NCBI GenBank assembly: GCA_028872915.1 | Contig: JAGWNY010000001.1 | Location: forward strand, 86,642 to 150,641 | Source: Verrucomicrobiota bacterium | GTDB taxonomy: Bacteria > Verrucomicrobiota > Verrucomicrobiia > Limisphaerales > UBA11358 | Length of the DNA stretch: 64,000 bases | Direction: 5' to 3' | In this document: one piece after another, positions 7,836 through 57,044 of the stretch | How the letters are laid out: the number at the start of each line of letters is the position of its first letter | How positions within the stretch are numbered: position 1 is the first letter of the stretch | The notes under the pieces: model-generated | Databases searched by the model: none | What the model was told of the DNA's origin: nothing | What the model saw: the letters and a program-made list of their open reading frames with translations, nothing else | Position numbers and translations under genes: made by a program

Positions 7836-8681
7836 TTGATCGTGCATCCGATTGCTTTTCACCTGGGACCGCTGACGATTCGATGGTATGGCGTCATGAT
7901 CGCCCTCGCCTTCCTCTTCGGCTTGTGGACGGCCATGCTGCGCGCGCGGCGCGAGGGAATTCCGGCTGAAAAAATTGGCGACGTGGTCCTTTGGATCATG
8001 GCCGGGGCGATTCTTGGAGCGCGCATCGTCTATGTGACCACATATTGGCGGGAGGAATTTGCCGGCCAACCCTTCATCGAAATTTTCATGATTCAGCGGG
8101 GTGGCCTCGTTTATTACGGGGGGTTCATTGGCGCCATCGTCGCCGGCTTTCTTTATCTGCGCTGGAAACGGCTCCCTTTATGGCGGACAGCCGACGTGCT
8201 CGCGCCCAGCATCACCCTCGGCAATGTGTTTGGCCGCGCCGGTTGCCTGCTCAACGGCTGCTGCTATGGACGGCCGACGAACGCACCCTGGGCAATCCAA
8301 TTCCCCAACGGTTCCTATGCCTGGTATCATCAGTTCTACGATCAACACCTGTCCGGCGTCACAGCCAACGGGCCGGCGCTGCCCGTTCATCCCACCGAAA
8401 TCTACGATGGCCTGCTCAACCTCCTCGTTTATTTCTTCCTGGCGTGGCTCTTCCGCCGGAAAAAGTTCGATGGCCAGGTCTTTGCAACCTGTCTCCTTTG
8501 TTATGGCGTCACGCGCTCCATCAGCGAAGCCTTCCGCGGCGACTATTCATCATTGCACTATCACCTGGGCCTTTCCCCGGGACAATGGCTCAGCATCCCC
8601 ACCTTCATCGCCGGCCTGTTCCTCGCCGCCATTTTGTCCCGCCGCGGCCCGATGCGCCGCGGATTCCAACCGGAGGGTTGA
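7836..8681 (+). CDS. lgt: prolipoprotein diacylglyceryl transferase
   Basis: GGLVYYGGFIGAIVAGFLYLRW...GRAGCLLNGCCYGRPT and HPTEIYDGL, hallmark Lgt motifs. Start is TTG/GTG. Confidence 0.95.
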   Translation: MIVHPIAFHLGPLTIRWYGVMIALAFLFGLWTAMLRARREGIPAEKIGDVVLWIMAGAILGARIVYVTTYWREEFAGQPFIEIFMIQRGGLVYYGGFIGAIVAGFLYLRWKRLPLWRTADVLAPSITLGNVFGRAGCLLNGCCYGRPTNAPWAIQFPNGSYAWYHQFYDQHLSGVTANGPALPVHPTEIYDGLLNLLVYFFLAWLFRRKKFDGQVFATCLLCYGVTRSISEAFRGDYSSLHYHLGLSPGQWLSIPTFIAGLFLAAILSRRGPMRRGFQPEG

Positions 8682-50410: not shown

Positions 50411-50675
50411 CGCTTTGTTTAGCCACGGATGAAACACTGATTGAACAAGGATAAAGACGGGAAAAGGGGTTTGGAACCGGCGTTTGGAACCGGCGGAGGC
50501 GGCTGAAATAATTATCTGCTTTAACCAACAAAATTAGAGATATGACTTGCGGCGGGAGGCAAAAATTCCAAAAATTCAGCTTGACTTCGTTTCGGGTTTC
50601 GTGTGTATTCGTCGGCGTGGATTTCGCTCGACGCATGACGCTGCTTTGCTTGTGCCTCTGAGGCGAATCCAGGCC

Positions 50676-53600
50676 ATGACATCCATCCGCCCATCGTCCT
50701 TCGCCTTTGCGCTTGTTCTGGCCGCGGTTGGCATCTGGCTGGGCATGGCGCCGGCGGCGCCGGGTGCCACGGTTATCGTGACCAATACGGCTGACAGCGG
50801 CCCCGGTTCGCTGCGCGAGGCCATCGGCAACAGCGCGGCTGGCGACACCATTCTCTTCACCAACACCCTTGCCGGCCAGACCATCCGCCTGACCGGCGGA
50901 GGGCTTCTCGTTTCCGAGAGCCTGACCATTGATGCATCCGGGCTGGCCGGAGGAGTTCGCATTGATGCCGACGGAAACTCGCGAGTAATGGAGATTCACA
51001 ACGCAAGCGTAATCCTCGATTCGCTCACGTTGACGAATGGCCGTGCCTCCAGCGCCGGCGGTGGAATACTGGTTGATGACGGCTCGATGCTCATCGCCAG
51101 CAATTGCGTCTTTTCGGGCAATGCCGCCTCCTACGGCGGCGGCATTGAGAATTACTCCGGCCCGATGACGCTCAACTATTGCACATTTTCGGGTAATTCC
51201 GCGACCTCTGGCAACGGCGGCGGCATAGACAACGGCGGCCCGATGACGCTCAACCATTGCGTCCTCTCGGATAATTCCGCCATCGGCGGCTATGGATTCG
51301 GCGGCGGCATTTGCAACACCTTTTACGACAGCGAGACCGCCACGCTCAACAATTGCGCGATCTCCAATAACTTCAGCGTCAGCGACGGCGGCGGTATTTC
51401 CACCGCGGCCGTGCCTGGGGGCGCGATGACGCTCAACAATTGCGTCTTGTCGGGCAACGCGACCGCCAACGGCTACGGGGGCGGCGTCGCCAGCGACTAT
51501 TCGGGCGCGCTGACGCTCAACAATTGCACCCTGTCCGGCAACTCCAGCCGCTGGAGCGGCGGCGGCGTTGACAACGACTATTGGAGCGCGCTGGCGCTCA
51601 ACAACTGCTCCCTGTCCGGCAATTCCGGCGTCCGGGGCGGCGGCGGCATTGAGAGCTACGGCCCCGCCATGCTCAATAATTGCACGTTGGCCGGCAATTC
51701 CGCCACCAACGGCAACGGCGGCGGCCTGTGCATCTCTTCGGGCGCCGTCGCGCTGACCAATACAATTGTGGCCGGGAACACGGCCTCCGGCGATGCCAAC
51801 GTCTCAGGCGGTTTCATCGGCGCCAACAACCTGATTGGCGGCGATCCGCGCCTTATGCCCTTGGGCAATTATGGCGGGCCGACTCAAACGATGCCGCCTT
51901 TGGCCGGCTCACCCGCGATTAACGCCGGCACGGATTCGGTCACCAATTTCCTGGCAACCGATCAGCGCGGATATCCGCGCTTATTCGGCGCGCACGTGGA
52001 CATTGGCGCGGTGGAGTTTCGCAATTTTGTCGTTCTCAATGCCAACGACAGTGGACCCGGTTCGCTGCGCGATGCCATTGCCCTTGCGCCGGATTTGGTC
52101 ACTTTCACCAACACACTTGCCGGCCAGACCATCCACCCGACGAGCGGAGAGCTTCTCATTTCCAACAGCATGACAATTGACGCGTCGGCGCTGCCTGGCG
52201 GGGTGAGCATTGCCCACGGCTACCCCCTCAGTTATCGTGTGATGGAGATTACAAACGCAACCGCGATCCTGGATTCCCTCACTTTTACAAACGCTGTATT
52301 CGTACTTTTCACCAGCGGCGCCGAAGGCGGCGGAATGCTGGTTGATCACGGCTCAACGCTTATCGCCAGCAATTGCATCTTCGGTAACGATGAAGTTAGC
52401 GGCTACTCGCGTGCGGGTGGAGGCAGCGGAGGTGGACTTGCCGTGGAGGGTGACGCCACGCTCACGGGATGCATTTTTTCTGGCAATGAGGCCGGCTCGT
52501 ACGGCGGCGCCATTTACAACAATGGCACTCTCACTCTCAACGATTGCGTGGTCTCGGACAATGATGTAGAGGAGTACCGGAACGGCTACCACTACAATGG
52601 CGGCGGCATTTACAACCGCGGCGTTCTAACGCTCAACAATTCCTTTCTGTCAAATAATGTCGCCGGTAGAATCATATTTTCTCATTATTACCAACGGGTG
52701 CCTGGGGACGGCGGCGGCATTTTCAGCTCCAACGCCCAGGTCACGCTCAGTAATTGTGTTGTCGCCGACAATGTCGCCTCCTCGGGAGGCGGCATTGAGA
52801 GTTACCGTGGCGGTTCTCTTACGCTCAACCGTTGCATAATATCAGGTAATTCCGCCACCAACGGGTACGGGAATGGCGGCGGCATTGACGCCGAAGGCGT
52901 CTCTCTGACACTCAACGATTGCACATTTTCGGGTAATTCCGCGACCTCTGGCGATGGCGGCGGCATTGACGCCGAAGGCGTCTCTCTGACGCTCAACGAT
53001 TGCGACATCTCCAGCAATGGGTGCGCATGGAACGGTGGCGGCATTTGCCTAGGACCTGGCAGGGGCACAGACGTGCTTAGCAATTGCACAATCTCTGGTA
53101 ATATAAGCGGCTTTGGCGGCGGCATTGGAAATAGCGTCGCGTTAGGCGCTCCAGCTCTCATGCTTAACAATTGCACCATCGCGGACAATTCGGCCACCAA
53201 CGGCAGTGGCGGCGGTATTGAAACCTCCGGGACTCTCATTATCAACAATTGCACCATCTCAGGCAATTTCACCACGAATGTGTTCGGCTGGAACAGCGGC
53301 GACGGCATTTCCCACGGCTTTATTACTGCGCTGACCAATACGATTGTGGCCGGGAACACGCCCGGCAACATCGCCATCCTTGGCCAATTTTCCGGCGCCA
53401 ACAACCTGATTGGCGGCGATCCGCGCCTTATGCCCTTGGGCAATCATGGGGGGCCTACTCAAACCATGCCGCCGTTGCCCGGTTCGCCGGCCATTGACGC
53501 CGGCACGGATTCAGTCACGAATTTTCTGGCAACCGATCAGCGCGGTTATCCGCGGTTGTTTGGCGCGCACGTGGACATTGGCGCGGTGGAACTCCGCAAC

Positions 53601-55421
53601 CCCGTCGTTCTCAACGCCAACGACAGCGGACCCGGTTCCCTGCGCCAGGCCATTGCCCTTGCGCCGGAGTTGGTCACTTTCACCAACACACTCGCCGGCC
53701 AGACCATTCTACTGACCAGCGGAGAGCTTTTCGTTTCCAACAGCATGACAATTGACGCATCGGCGCTGCCGGGCGGCGCAAGCATTGCCAGCCCACGGTT
53801 CGGTGTCCCCGCTCATCGTGTGATGGAGATTACAAACGCAACCGCGATCCTGGATTCCCTCACGTTGACGAACGGCGAAGCCTACAACGGCGGCGGAATA
53901 TTGGTTGACGGCGGCTCAACGCTCATTGCCAGCAATTGCATCTTCTCAGGCAATTCCGCTTTTGATCGCTATTACCCCTTTGGTCCTGGAATTGGCGGGG
54001 CCATCTGCGGTTCTCCCCTGACCACGGTCACGCTCGTTGGATGCACTCTTTCTGGCAATGAGGCCAATTCCTTTGGCGGAGCCGTTTATGATTTTCCCCT
54101 AGCCACTGTCACGCTCACCGGATGCACGCTTTCCGGCAATAAGGCCAATTCCTCTGGCGGAGCCATTTTTGTGGATTTTCCCCCAGCCACTGTCACGCTC
54201 ACCGGATGCACGCTTTCCGGAAACGCTGCCAACTCAGCTGGCGGCGCCATTGACAACAACGGCACTCTCACGCTCAACGATTGCGTGCTCTCGGACAATG
54301 TCGCACGCCAACAGTTCGGCTACCGCTACGGCCCCCCCGGCAACGGCGGCGGCATTTACAACCACGGCGCTTTGACGCTCAACAATTGCATCCTTTCAGA
54401 TAACTCCGCCACAAGCTACCTCGGTTTCGGCGCTGGCGGTGGCATTTGCAGTGTCGGGTTGCCGGCCACGCTTAATAATTGCACGTTGTCTGGTAACACC
54501 GCCAGCGCCGGCGGCGGCATTGAAGCCTCTGGCACGCTGACACTCAACAATTGCACATTGTTTGACAACACCGCCGGCAACGGCGGCGGCATTGCGAGCT
54601 CTATCTTCTTCGGATCCACGAACGTTTTGACGCTCAACAATTGCACGCTGTCAGGCAACTCCGCAACGAACTTCGGTGTCCCTTTCATCCAAGGCTTCGG
54701 CAGCTTCGGCGGCTACGGCGGCGGCATAGACACCTACGGCCCTGCCTCGCTCAACAATTGCACCCTTTCCGGCAACTCCAGCGGCACGAACGGCGGCGGC
54801 ATATATGCCGATGATGCTGCGCTCAACAATTGCACCATCTCCGGCAATCACTCATACTACGGCGGCGGCATTGGCGGCCATGTCCTAGGGATAACGAATA
54901 CAATTGTGGCCGGGAACACTCCCGGCAACATCGCCATCTTTGGCCAATTTTCCGGCGCCAACAACCTGATTGGCGGCGATCCGCGGCTTATGCCATTGGG
55001 CAATCATGGAGGGCCGACCCAAACGATGCCGCCCTTGCCCGGTTCACCCGCCATTGACGCCGGCGCGGATTCAGTCACGAATTTTCTGGCCACCGATCAG
55101 CGCGGTTATCCGCGTTTGTCCGGCGCGCACGTGGACATTGGCGCGGTGGAGGTGCAATTTGTTCCGGCGCCCGCGAACAGTCCGCCGGTGATCACGGGCG
55201 CGTTCTGGGCCTATGCGGGCGAAAGCAACGCCTTTCAATTCACGTTCACCAACGTGTTGGATGCCGATTTCACCGCGCTGGCCTCCACGAACATGGCCCT
55301 GCCATTGGCCGATTGGACGGTCCTGGGCAATATCCCTGAAATTTCGCCCGGCGAATACCAATTCACCGATTGGAACGCGACCAATTCCGCGCAATGCTTT
55401 TACCGCGTCGTTTCGCCCTGA
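50676..55421 (+). CDS. giant right-handed beta-helix surface protein (Pmp-like repeats, choice-of-anchor-Q-like modules)
   Basis: Signal peptide; tens of LNNCTLSGNSATxGGGI repeats; three copies of a GSLR(D/E/Q)AI...TFTNTLAGQTI head and a SGANNLIGGDPRLMPLGNxGGPTQTMPPLxGSPAI tail. Confidence 0.85.
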   Translation: MTSIRPSSFAFALVLAAVGIWLGMAPAAPGATVIVTNTADSGPGSLREAIGNSAAGDTILFTNTLAGQTIRLTGGGLLVSESLTIDASGLAGGVRIDADGNSRVMEIHNASVILDSLTLTNGRASSAGGGILVDDGSMLIASNCVFSGNAASYGGGIENYSGPMTLNYCTFSGNSATSGNGGGIDNGGPMTLNHCVLSDNSAIGGYGFGGGICNTFYDSETATLNNCAISNNFSVSDGGGISTAAVPGGAMTLNNCVLSGNATANGYGGGVASDYSGALTLNNCTLSGNSSRWSGGGVDNDYWSALALNNCSLSGNSGVRGGGGIESYGPAMLNNCTLAGNSATNGNGGGLCISSGAVALTNTIVAGNTASGDANVSGGFIGANNLIGGDPRLMPLGNYGGPTQTMPPLAGSPAINAGTDSVTNFLATDQRGYPRLFGAHVDIGAVEFRNFVVLNANDSGPGSLRDAIALAPDLVTFTNTLAGQTIHPTSGELLISNSMTIDASALPGGVSIAHGYPLSYRVMEITNATAILDSLTFTNAVFVLFTSGAEGGGMLVDHGSTLIASNCIFGNDEVSGYSRAGGGSGGGLAVEGDATLTGCIFSGNEAGSYGGAIYNNGTLTLNDCVVSDNDVEEYRNGYHYNGGGIYNRGVLTLNNSFLSNNVAGRIIFSHYYQRVPGDGGGIFSSNAQVTLSNCVVADNVASSGGGIESYRGGSLTLNRCIISGNSATNGYGNGGGIDAEGVSLTLNDCTFSGNSATSGDGGGIDAEGVSLTLNDCDISSNGCAWNGGGICLGPGRGTDVLSNCTISGNISGFGGGIGNSVALGAPALMLNNCTIADNSATNGSGGGIETSGTLIINNCTISGNFTTNVFGWNSGDGISHGFITALTNTIVAGNTPGNIAILGQFSGANNLIGGDPRLMPLGNHGGPTQTMPPLPGSPAIDAGTDSVTNFLATDQRGYPRLFGAHVDIGAVELRNPVVLNANDSGPGSLRQAIALAPELVTFTNTLAGQTILLTSGELFVSNSMTIDASALPGGASIASPRFGVPAHRVMEITNATAILDSLTLTNGEAYNGGGILVDGGSTLIASNCIFSGNSAFDRYYPFGPGIGGAICGSPLTTVTLVGCTLSGNEANSFGGAVYDFPLATVTLTGCTLSGNKANSSGGAIFVDFPPATVTLTGCTLSGNAANSAGGAIDNNGTLTLNDCVLSDNVARQQFGYRYGPPGNGGGIYNHGALTLNNCILSDNSATSYLGFGAGGGICSVGLPATLNNCTLSGNTASAGGGIEASGTLTLNNCTLFDNTAGNGGGIASSIFFGSTNVLTLNNCTLSGNSATNFGVPFIQGFGSFGGYGGGIDTYGPASLNNCTLSGNSSGTNGGGIYADDAALNNCTISGNHSYYGGGIGGHVLGITNTIVAGNTPGNIAIFGQFSGANNLIGGDPRLMPLGNHGGPTQTMPPLPGSPAIDAGADSVTNFLATDQRGYPRLSGAHVDIGAVEVQFVPAPANSPPVITGAFWAYAGESNAFQFTFTNVLDADFTALASTNMALPLADWTVLGNIPEISPGEYQFTDWNATNSAQCFYRVVSP

Positions 55422-55554
55422 AGCTGCATCCGCCCAAATCAAACCAAATCACGATCCAGACCGCATCCACTGGCGTCAAATCAAGCCTGTTCAATCACCC
55501 GAACACGAAATGCGCTTGCTCCGCGGCGGGTTGCCGGGGGATAATAACCGCGGT

Positions 55555-55643
55555 GGAGAGGTGGCAGAGTGGTTTAACGCGCACGCCTGGAGAGCGTGAA
55601 TACCCAAAAGGTATCGGGGGTTCGAATCCCCCCCTCTCCGCCA
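55555..55643 (+). tRNA. tRNA-Ser(GGA), CCA encoded
   Basis: Acceptor GGAGAGG/CCTCTCC, anticodon loop ctGGAga between acgc/gcgt, long variable arm, GGTTCGAATCC T-arm, GCCA 3' end. Confidence 0.95.
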
Positions 55644-55646
55644 GTT
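55617..55646. repeat. direct repeat copy 1 (tRNA-Ser 3' end; candidate att site)
   Basis: ggggttcgaatccccccctctccgccagtt; near-identical copy at 56915-56945, one C longer. Confidence 0.85.
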
Positions 55647-55654
55647 CGATTCGA

Positions 55655-55826
55655 GAGGTTTTTCGCGCTGATGCGCGAGAATGGTCGTGGGGTCGGAATT
55701 AAAGTCGGCCCAGTAAATCCACGGGTTTTTGAACTCCAGCCGCAACGTTTTATCCCCCACTTGAAAGTTCGAACCGATGTTTTTGAGAAAACCGCGTTTT
55801 CTCTCCGCGTTTCCTTCGGCGAGCAA
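55655..55826 (-). pseudogene. possible C-terminal remnant of a serine recombinase/resolvase-family protein
   Basis: Reverse strand reads AEGNAERKRGFLKNIGSNFQVGDKTLRLEFKNPWIYWADFN, resembling recombinase C-terminal tails; no upstream catalytic domain. Confidence 0.4.
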
Positions 55827-55896
55827 TAGAACCGCTTGTTACGTCCGCGCCGGACAGAAGGGTTGCAGTTGGATGGAAGATCCGGCAGATTAACCC

Positions 55897-56109
55897 ATGA
55901 TGAAAGCGGTTGCATTAACAGCCCATTTTGACGGCGAGAAGGTTCAGTTTGACGAACCATGCCAACTTGACCCCAATGCGCGGCTGGTGGTCGTGGTGCT
56001 GCCACCCGATGATGAACGCCACGCTTGGTCGCGATACTCCGCCGGTCAGTTGGCGAAAGCTTACGGCGACAACGAGCCGGAATATACCACCGCTGACGTG
56101 CGCCCATGA
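55897..56109 (+). CDS. putative antitoxin of a type II TA pair
   Basis: 70 aa MMKAVALTAHFDGEKVQFDEPCQLDPNARLVVVVLPP...; ATGA overlap with the downstream MazF-like ORF. Confidence 0.6.
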   Translation: MMKAVALTAHFDGEKVQFDEPCQLDPNARLVVVVLPPDDERHAWSRYSAGQLAKAYGDNEPEYTTADVRP

Positions 56110-56465
56110 CCGAAGGTGACATCGCCCTGGCCCCGTTGCCCCAAGCCGACGGCCAGATCAAAAACCGGCCCATTGTTTTGCTCCGACGATTCCCTCCCTT
56201 CGGCGATTTCCTCGTCTGTGGCGTGAGCAGCCAACTCCACCAGAGCGTTGCTGGGTTTGACGAAACCATTGCGCCGGCTGACAACGAATTTGCCGCCAGC
56301 GGACTCAAGGCGGCGTCGCTTATTCGGTTGGGCTTTCTCGCGGTGCTGCCAGAATCGGCGCTTCTGGGAAAAATCGGCTCGCTGTCGTCCGAACGCCGGC
56401 AACGACTGCTGGCCAACCTTTGCCGCCATCTGGGTTCGCAAGACCAGCCCGGCTCGAAGAAATAA
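56106..56465 (+). CDS. PemK/MazF-like toxin
   Basis: GDIALAPLPQADGQIKNRPIVLLRRFPPFGDFLVCGVSSQ...SLIRLGFLAVLPESALLGKIGSLSSERRQRLLANL. Confidence 0.7.
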   Translation: MTEGDIALAPLPQADGQIKNRPIVLLRRFPPFGDFLVCGVSSQLHQSVAGFDETIAPADNEFAASGLKAASLIRLGFLAVLPESALLGKIGSLSSERRQRLLANLCRHLGSQDQPGSKK

Positions 56466-56748
56466 CCGAATACAGACTGCGCTGACTTTTTGGACGACAG
56501 AATTCCAGCACGGCCGTTGAGAGAATTTTCGCTTGGCTGACCAGGATGCAAGTTCATGGCCCGGCATCCCTAGTCGGTTCGTCAGCCTGGCGTCCGTATT
56601 GCAGCCGCAGCCGTTGCCAGCCTCGCCAGCGCGTTTTTCCCAAAGCGGGGAGCCAAGTTGCGGGTGGACCGTATCCCGGCCCGTAGGCGCGTTAAATTCG
56701 ATTGCGCCGCGTTCACGTTCCTTGTCAGGTGAAAGCTCATGGTGAAAA

Positions 56749-56913
56749 TCATTCCGCCGATTTGACGATGGCGAGAATTGCGGCCTTGAGCGGGGCCGGG
56801 AGTTTTTCCCAGGCGGTGACTGCTTGGGACAAATCGTGGCTTGACGAGACTGAAATTTGTGAGTCTATTTGTGAGTCGCTGTGCGGATTTCCCTTATTTT
56901 CGCCGGGAAACCA
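56749..56913 (-). pseudogene. C-terminal remnant of a probable tyrosine recombinase/integrase
   Basis: My own reverse-strand translation WFPGENKGNPHSDSQIDSQISVSSSHDLSQAVTAWEKLPAPLKAAILAIVKSAE*; the AWxxLPxxLKAAILAxVK ending resembles phage-integrase-family C-termini; abuts the duplicated tRNA end. Confidence 0.5.
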
Positions 56914-56914
56914 T

Positions 56915-56945
56915 GGGGTTCGAATCCCCCCCCTCTCCGCCAGTT
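56915..56945. repeat. direct repeat copy 2 of tRNA-Ser 3' end (candidate att site)
   Basis: ggggttcgaatcccccccctctccgccagtt, matches 55617-55646 apart from one extra C. Confidence 0.85.
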
Positions 56946-56965
56946 GGCTTCTTCAGTATCGAAAA

Positions 56966-57044
56966 TGGGGTGGTCAACGGGATTTGAACCCGCGACAGCC
57001 AGATCCACAATCTGGGGCTCTAACCAGGCTGAGCTATGACCACC
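56966..57044 (-). tRNA. tRNA-His(GTG), CCA encoded
   Basis: Reverse complement GGTGGTCATAGCTCAGCCTGGTTAGAGCCCCAGATTGTGGATCTGGCTGTCGCGGGTTCAAATCCCGTTGACCACCCCA; G-1:C73 pair present. Confidence 0.95.

What the first reader, a model, noticed from the sequence alone, without database searches (positions are those of the whole stretch)
55555..56945. tRNA-Ser integration scar: 1.3-kb mini-island with a MazF-type TA pair between duplicated tRNA 3' ends
Seen directly: the last ~30 nt of tRNA-Ser(GGA), including T-arm, acceptor strand, CCA and a few 3' nt, recur at 56915-56945 with a one-C difference. Between the copies are an ATGA-overlapping antitoxin/MazF-like toxin pair and no intact recombinase. 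Established knowledge: tRNA 3' ends are common attB sites, and integration leaves such direct repeats. Inference: an integrated element decayed by deletion, leaving the TA pair, which may have been retained through addiction.
Basis: partly seen in the sequence, partly recalled or inferred. Interest (0 to 1): 0.66.

Follow-up and report, generated by a model that had tools for sequence, protein, structure and literature searches.

The report
Integrase genes split by own insertion
The 1.3-kb stretch beside the tRNA-Ser gene is a scar of at least two decayed mobile elements, and one of its fragments is the severed C-terminal tail of an integrase, from a widespread Verrucomicrobiota family whose integrase gene contains its own attachment site and so changes its own protein each time the element inserts.

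Summary
In detail: tRNA-Ser(GGA) 55555-55643 is intact and its 3' end (55617-55646) recurs at 56915-56945 with one extra C. It is an att duplication, not a broken second tRNA. The interpretation needs changing. The scar is not one element minus its recombinase. The left end (to 55840) is the C-terminal remnant of a large serine recombinase. The right end (56544-56945) is the far end of a tyrosine-integrase element. The MazF/PemK pair between them also occurs elsewhere without att sites.

The right end holds an orphan minus-strand ORF (56952-56749). In relatives this ORF is the C-terminal tail of the integrase itself. The integrase ORF runs into the tRNA at one end of the element, and the tail starts in the att copy at the other end. 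In 22 of 23 elements where both att copies were found by DNA repeat alone, joining them fuses integrase and tail in frame, with a conserved W..LP..LKAAILAI helical hairpin, across 12 tRNA types. So attP lies inside int, and insertion swaps about 55-70 residues for a few tRNA-encoded ones.

The principle is known from phage Mx8 and, differently, archaeal SSV1. New here are a non-homologous, phylum-wide family and a conserved, selected tail. The tail's function is inferred.

The parts
55555..55643 (+). tRNA-Ser(GGA), intact; the attachment target
   Evidence: ARAGORN
55617..55646 (+). tRNA-side att copy (T-arm to CCA plus GTT), 7 C
   Evidence: repeat search
55647..55840 (-). remnant of the C-terminal end of a large serine recombinase (FLKNIGSNFQVGDKTLRLEFKNPWIYWADF...), its reading frame running into the tRNA
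   Evidence: 57% identical over 77 aa to the G026 homologue, with one internal TAA; DNA 83% to G026:C224 over 55543-55840; full-length relative L206 has PF00239, PF07508 and PF13408
55897..56109 (+). putative antitoxin, 70 aa
   Evidence: ORF; no Pfam match; homologue in L031
56106..56465 (+). PemK/MazF-type toxin, 119 aa, start overlaps antitoxin stop (ATGA)
   Evidence: PF02452, E 1.5e-7
56544..56914 (-). far (attR-side) end of a tyrosine-integrase element; contains the tail and the truncated start of the element's next gene (MNL.P...)
   Evidence: 81% to G009:C83 and G033:C41 over 56544-56942
56749..56952 (-). orphan C-terminal tail of the lost integrase (coding continues from the att core; stop at 56749-56751): ...SQIDSQISVSSSHDLSQAVTAWEKLPAPLKAAILAIVKSAE*
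   Evidence: tail HMM score 103, iE 7.6e-30 (this sequence was in the seed); pN/pS 0.29 in the motif across 16 tails
56855..56877 (-). two ATTTGTGAGTC repeats (56855-56865 and 56867-56877, 12-bp period), candidate arm-type integrase sites on the tail side of the core
   Evidence: sequence; the same word occurs in int linker and tail of the L032 and L033 elements
56915..56945 (+). displaced att copy, 8 C
56966..57043 (-). tRNA-His(GTG), host flank, followed by scpA

Best explanation
The locus is a composite scar at a tRNA-Ser integration hot spot. A tyrosine-integrase element inserted in the 3' end of tRNA-Ser; its body and catalytic int gene were later lost, leaving its attR end and the severed int tail. 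The tRNA-proximal side now carries the end of a second, serine-recombinase element, and a MazF/PemK pair sits between. The tail shows how the first element works. In the excised circle the whole attP (core plus candidate arm sites) lies inside the int reading frame, so the circle encodes integrase with a C-terminal helical-hairpin tail. Recombination at the tRNA core cuts the gene after the catalytic domain. The integrated copy keeps a full R-K-H-R-H-Y catalytic domain but ends in a few residues read from the tRNA, while the tail lies silent at the other end of the element; excision would restore it. Shown by sequence: the split, the frame match, the catalytic residues, selection on the tail. 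Inferred: that the circle expresses the fused protein, and that the tail favours integration and its loss damps or biases later recombination, as reported for Mx8.
For: Whole elements: L033 (G009) has int 1186-2478 ending GGERGIRTPDSF inside tRNA-Ser and, 11.3 kb away at the second att copy, GGEGGIRTP...LPAPLKAAILAIIKSAE. All 8 complete same-genus elements tested join in frame, at Ser, Leu, Asp, Val, Arg and Gly tRNAs. Using only DNA repeats to place the second att copy, 22 of 23 elements are open and in frame with a recognisable tail; the two other frames show the motif 0 times in 46 (binomial P about 5e-10 if frame were random). A further set adds 9 in-frame elements, including closed genomes such as G371. 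A profile of joined proteins breaks at the core in new genomes: int hits end at or before about model position 190 and tail hits cover the rest some 4-8 kb away, same contig and strand. Candidate arm repeats lie on both sides of the core within the coding region, 13 of 23 beyond all shuffles. Tail pN/pS is 0.29. Catalytic residues are invariant. The tail is modelled as two helices with pLDDT above 90. The int-tail pair that directly adjoins out of frame (L086) is best read as a junction between two tandem elements.
Against: No contiguous int-tail gene (the circular form) was seen among 166 int-family ORFs, 289 genomes or viral contigs; it is reconstructed. In the window the int is lost, so its own frame match cannot be tested, and the 8-C core would shift frame upstream. 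L189 and L288 had a repeat but no recognisable tail. Arm-site matches are not significant in 10 of 23. Genomes are mostly metagenome-assembled and loci are partly related, so counts are not fully independent. No functional data.
Confidence: 0.86

Rival explanations
1. One reading: one integrated element, decayed by deletion, leaving a MazF TA pair kept by addiction.
For: True att repeat, TA pair between the copies, no intact recombinase; G000 has no full-length relatives of either recombinase.
Against: The ends belong to different recombinase families (against 21, 28, 94). A homologous TA pair lies next to frr in G008 without att. No evidence for addiction.
Confidence: 0.1
2. The tail is an independent small gene (for example a directionality factor) at the element's end; the integrase running into the tRNA is incidental.
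For: Tail ORFs are conserved and under purifying selection; excisionases are often small and near att.
Against: An independent gene need not match the int frame: 22 of 23 in frame, plus 9 more. Different elements use different frames through the same T-arm (GIRTP, GDSNP, GFEP) yet int and tail agree.
Confidence: 0.06
3. The right copy is a decayed second tRNA-Ser gene rather than an att duplication.
For: The shared sequence is tRNA 3' end only.
Against: Left of the copy the DNA matches element ends in two other genomes over 400 nt, not a tRNA 5' half.
Confidence: 0.01
4. The split is a by-product: attP sits in int only to save space, and the tail stays open merely because attP arm sites happen to be translated.
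For: Candidate arm repeats lie in the linker and in the first half of the tail.
Against: The hairpin motif lies beyond the arm repeats and is conserved at protein level (pN/pS 0.29) across classes of the phylum and in a Phycisphaerales contig.
Confidence: 0.15

Closest known systems
Myxococcus phage Mx8 (and Mx9) tyrosine integrase with attP inside int (Tojo 1996; Magrini 1999; described in PMC6070905 and PMC4701971)
   Same: attP lies inside the integrase coding sequence; insertion gives int a new 3' end; the catalytic domain survives. For Mx8, 112 C-terminal residues are replaced by 13 and the prophage form is less active.
   Different: Not detectably homologous to Mx8 Int (family HMM 1.1 bits; no tail motif). 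Here it is a multi-tRNA family across Verrucomicrobiota with a shared hairpin tail, both insertion orientations and tandem arrays, in elements of roughly 1.4-15 kb whose other genes were not surveyed.
Archaeal SSV1/pTN3/pT26-2 suicidal integrases (PMC8371274)
   Same: attP within the int gene; insertion partitions the gene.
   Different: There the split separates an N-terminal part from the catalytic part and is described as inactivating. Here the catalytic domain stays whole and only a C-terminal tail is lost. Pfam gives PF00589, not the PF16795 that the review names.
Mycobacteriophage BPs integration-dependent immunity (PMC4557955)
   Same: attP in a coding gene; insertion changes a C-terminus.
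   Different: The gene with attP is the repressor, not the integrase (own knowledge plus abstract).
Streptococcal ICEs with serine integrases in rumA (PMC4701971)
   Same: att inside the integrase gene; the C-terminus changes on insertion.
   Different: Serine recombinase, protein-gene target; the replacement changes the reading frame.
Islander-type tRNA genomic islands (PMC4383910)
   Same: Restored tRNA plus displaced 3' fragment.
   Different: The window copy has no integrase and is under 2 kb, so that algorithm would reject it. The paper treats integrases crossing attP as an exception, citing Mx8 and SSV.

Membership tests
tRNA-integrated genomic island (Islander criteria) | intact tRNA plus displaced 3' fragment in the same orientation | tested here: met
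tRNA-integrated genomic island (Islander criteria) | integrase gene inside, length 2-200 kb | tested here: not met
   only recombinase fragments; about 1.3 kb
Type II MazF/PemK toxin-antitoxin | PF02452 toxin above cut-off | tested here: met
   32 bits against 23.1
Type II MazF/PemK toxin-antitoxin | toxicity and neutralisation by the upstream protein | not testable with these tools
   needs expression assay
Mx8-type self-altering integrase | tyrosine recombinase with intact catalytic residues after insertion | tested here: met
   PF00589; R216, K245, H310, R313, H336, Y346 invariant in 14 family members; the window copy has lost this part
Mx8-type self-altering integrase | attP core inside the int reading frame; insertion replaces the C-terminus | tested here: met
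   22/23 plus 9 elements in relatives
Mx8-type self-altering integrase | arm sequences on both sides of the core within int | tested here: inconclusive
   repeats in both arms, 13/23 beyond all shuffles; no binding data
Mx8-type self-altering integrase | altered activity of the integrated form | not testable with these tools
   needs recombination assay
Mx8-type self-altering integrase | sequence kinship with Mx8 Int | tested here: not met
   1.1 bits, no tail match
SSV1-type suicidal integrase | split separates the N-terminal part from the catalytic part; PF16795 domain | tested here: not met
   catalytic domain intact; PF00589
Large serine recombinase (left remnant) | PF00239 + PF07508 + zinc ribbon | tested here: met
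   met in the full-length relative L206; the window keeps only the C-terminus

The most novel reading that the evidence does not exclude
Across Verrucomicrobiota (and at least some Planctomycetota) a family of tRNA-targeting tyrosine integrases uses a built-in state switch. A conserved C-terminal helical hairpin is present only when the element is a circle and is cut off by integration, so recombination direction or integrase activity is set by the gene's own rearrangement rather than by a separate directionality factor.
Probability: 0.4. Interest if true: 0.75.

Novelty: new variant of a known kind. Interest (0 to 1): 0.55.

Why it matters
Att sites inside the cognate integrase gene have been described as present in very few integrative elements (PMC4701971), and the archaeal review calls suicidal integrases exclusively archaeal (PMC8371274). 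Here the same principle looks like the normal design of a large integrase family in a poorly studied phylum, with about 31 in-frame element pairs at more than a dozen tRNA types. It explains a recurrent oddity: integrases with tRNA-derived nonsense C-termini, and orphan conserved ORFs beside tRNA fragments. It gives a sequence rule for finding element ends, offers natural tail-plus and tail-minus pairs for testing how integrase direction is controlled, and warns that integrases taken from integrated copies may be missing a functional part.

Tried and rejected
Empty-site synteny: relatives keep tRNA-His beside scpA but without tRNA-Ser, so no empty or fuller version of this exact site was found. 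Viral contigs for the serine remnant and for the L033 integrase: nothing. Plasmid and phage collections: only distant integrases. Unsplit int-tail gene: none among 166 int-family ORFs, 289 genomes or viral contigs. L086, where int and tail adjoin, first looked like a circle but is out of frame and reads as a junction of two tandem elements. Serine-recombinase elements were checked for a second att copy and tail; none recovered in the fetched stretches. Homology to Mx8 Int rejected. The original Mx8 paper tried is not in the library; statements on Mx8 come from two open papers. No prior report of this arrangement in Verrucomicrobiota or Planctomycetota was found, but the library holds open-licence papers only.

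Full report
WHAT IS THERE. The tRNA-Ser(GGA) gene at 55555-55643 is intact. Its 3' end, from the T-arm through CCA plus GTT, is repeated at 56915-56945 with eight instead of seven C in one run. Between the copies lie a 70-aa ORF and, overlapping by ATGA, a 119-aa PemK/MazF-type ORF (PF02452, E 1.5e-7).

IT IS AN ATT DUPLICATION. Same-genus genomes hold whole elements at tRNA-Ser genes. In L033 (G009) tRNA-Ser(GGA) is at 1137-1225 and a 3'-end copy lies 11.3 kb away; in L032 (G033) tRNA-Ser(GCT) is at 7997-8089 and a copy lies 10.0 kb away. Window 56544-56942 matches the last 400 nt of both elements at 81%, and similarity stops at CCA, where host DNA starts. A decayed tRNA would instead show a tRNA 5' half.

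TWO ELEMENTS, NOT ONE. The minus strand from 55826 to the tRNA encodes FLKNIGSNFQVGDKTLRLEFKNPWIYWADF..., 57% identical over 77 aa to a homologue ending at tRNA-Ser in G026, with one internal stop. A full-length relative is a 524-aa large serine recombinase with resolvase, recombinase and zinc-ribbon domains. DNA similarity to the G026 locus ends at 55840. The right-hand block belongs to a tyrosine-integrase element. The TA block 55918-56469 matches G008 at 78%, where the pair sits beside frr with no tRNA. The locus is thus a mosaic of three blocks with short unassigned joins. On the right, similarity to the intact element ends about five codons into that element's next gene, a likely deletion point.

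THE TAIL. Reading left from the displaced att copy, the minus strand runs ...SQIDSQISVSSSHDLSQAVTAWEKLPAPLKAAILAIVKSAE-stop. In relatives the same peptide sits at the far end of elements whose tyrosine integrase, at the other end, reads out through the tRNA: in L033 the integrase ends ...GGERGIRTPDSF and the tail begins GGEGGIRTPQNS.... Of family integrases checked for a neighbouring tRNA, most overlap one, of Ser, Leu, Pro, Val, Asp, Lys, Arg or Gly type. If the element is closed into a circle through the att core, integrase and tail become one reading frame.

TEST OF THE FRAME. In the first eight same-genus elements with both ends, int and tail are in the same phase. For the wider test the second att copy was chosen only as the longest exact DNA repeat of the tRNA region, without using the tail: 22 of 23 elements are in frame, open for 54-70 codons after the core and carry the tail motif; the two other frames have the motif in none of 46 cases and are mostly short. 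If frame were random, 22 of 23 has a probability of about 5e-10 (own arithmetic with the formula). Different elements pass through the same T-arm in different frames (GIRTP, GDSNP, GFEP), so the agreement is not imposed by the tRNA. A second set found with a profile of joined proteins gives nine further in-frame elements, including closed genomes; in three of them (G224) the tail is recognisable by eye but too diverged for the motif pattern used. In that search the profile breaks at the core: integrase hits end at or before about position 190 and separate tail hits cover the rest some 4-8 kb away. The clear out-of-frame pair, L086, has int and tail touching; its integrase frame belongs to one subfamily and its tail frame to another, as expected at a junction of two tandem elements.

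BOTH ORIENTATIONS. In some elements the tail adjoins the tRNA and the integrase is distal (for example L042); convergent int-att-int (L082, L084) and tail-att-tail (L036) junctions also occur. The T-loop sequence GGTTCGAATCC is nearly palindromic, which would permit this (inference).

ATTP INSIDE THE GENE. The linker between catalytic domain and core, and the first half of the tail, share short tandem repeats within each element, for example GACTCACAAATAGACTCACAA (12-bp period) or GACTCCCGAATAGACTCCCGAA, lying about 110-177 bp to one side of the core and 28-75 bp to the other; in 13 of 23 elements the shared word exceeds every shuffle. This is where arm-type sites of a lambda-like attP would be. 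Binding is not shown.

IS THE TAIL A REAL PROTEIN PART? Across 16 same-genus tails the 29-codon motif has pN/pS 0.29, and the motif is recognisable across several classes of the phylum and in a Phycisphaerales contig. AlphaFold models the last 29 residues as two helices with pLDDT above 90, while the linker has low confidence. The integrated integrase keeps all catalytic residues, so this is not a suicidal enzyme.

HOW IT MOST LIKELY WORKS. The circle makes integrase with the tail; integration removes it; excision restores it. By analogy with Mx8, where the integrated form has 13 instead of 112 C-terminal residues and is less active (PMC4701971; PMC6070905), the likely outcome is a stable integrated state with the fully active enzyme available only to the incoming circle. 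The split and frame are shown by sequence; expression of the fused protein and the effect of the tail are inferred. A circle has not been observed: 166 family ORFs, 289 genomes and the viral contigs searched held none.

COMPARISON WITH THE KNOWN. The principle is Mx8-like but the family is not detectably related to Mx8 Int (1.1 bits). The SSV1 type removes the catalytic part, and the archaeal review calls such suicidal integrases exclusively archaeal (PMC8371274). Islander allows integrases that cross attP, citing Mx8 and SSV (PMC4383910). What appears new is a conserved, selected tail in a phylum-wide family. I rate it a new variant of a known kind. The window copy itself is a relic.

Noticed in passing
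55647-55840; L034, L039, L044: C-terminal remnants of large serine recombinases end inside tRNA-Ser genes in the window, G026 (two loci) and G010. The Islander paper (PMC4383910) states that only tyrosine recombinases were known to target tRNA genes.
   Followed up: partly
L031 7831-8504 (G008): The same antitoxin/PemK pair lies beside frr in another genome with no att site, so the pair seems to move or persist on its own.
   Followed up: partly
L082, L084, L036, L086: Elements pile up at tRNA-Ser in both orientations, giving convergent integrases or convergent tails that share one att core.
   Followed up: partly
L033 11846-12127 and 10842-11348; L119 10277-11583: Two conserved small genes without Pfam matches (MNLNPAELL... 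membrane-like; MNTPTTPTPDLESL...) follow the tail in several elements, and also on an IMG/VR contig that carries apparent phage structural genes.
   Followed up: no
G000:C42:10341-10799 and G000:C63:13861-14127: The window's own genome has other broken pieces of both recombinase families but no full-length copy was found.
   Followed up: partly
50547-55421 (+): 1624-aa repeat protein (SGNSATN.GGGI... beta-helix-like repeats) directly upstream of the tRNA-Ser.
   Followed up: no
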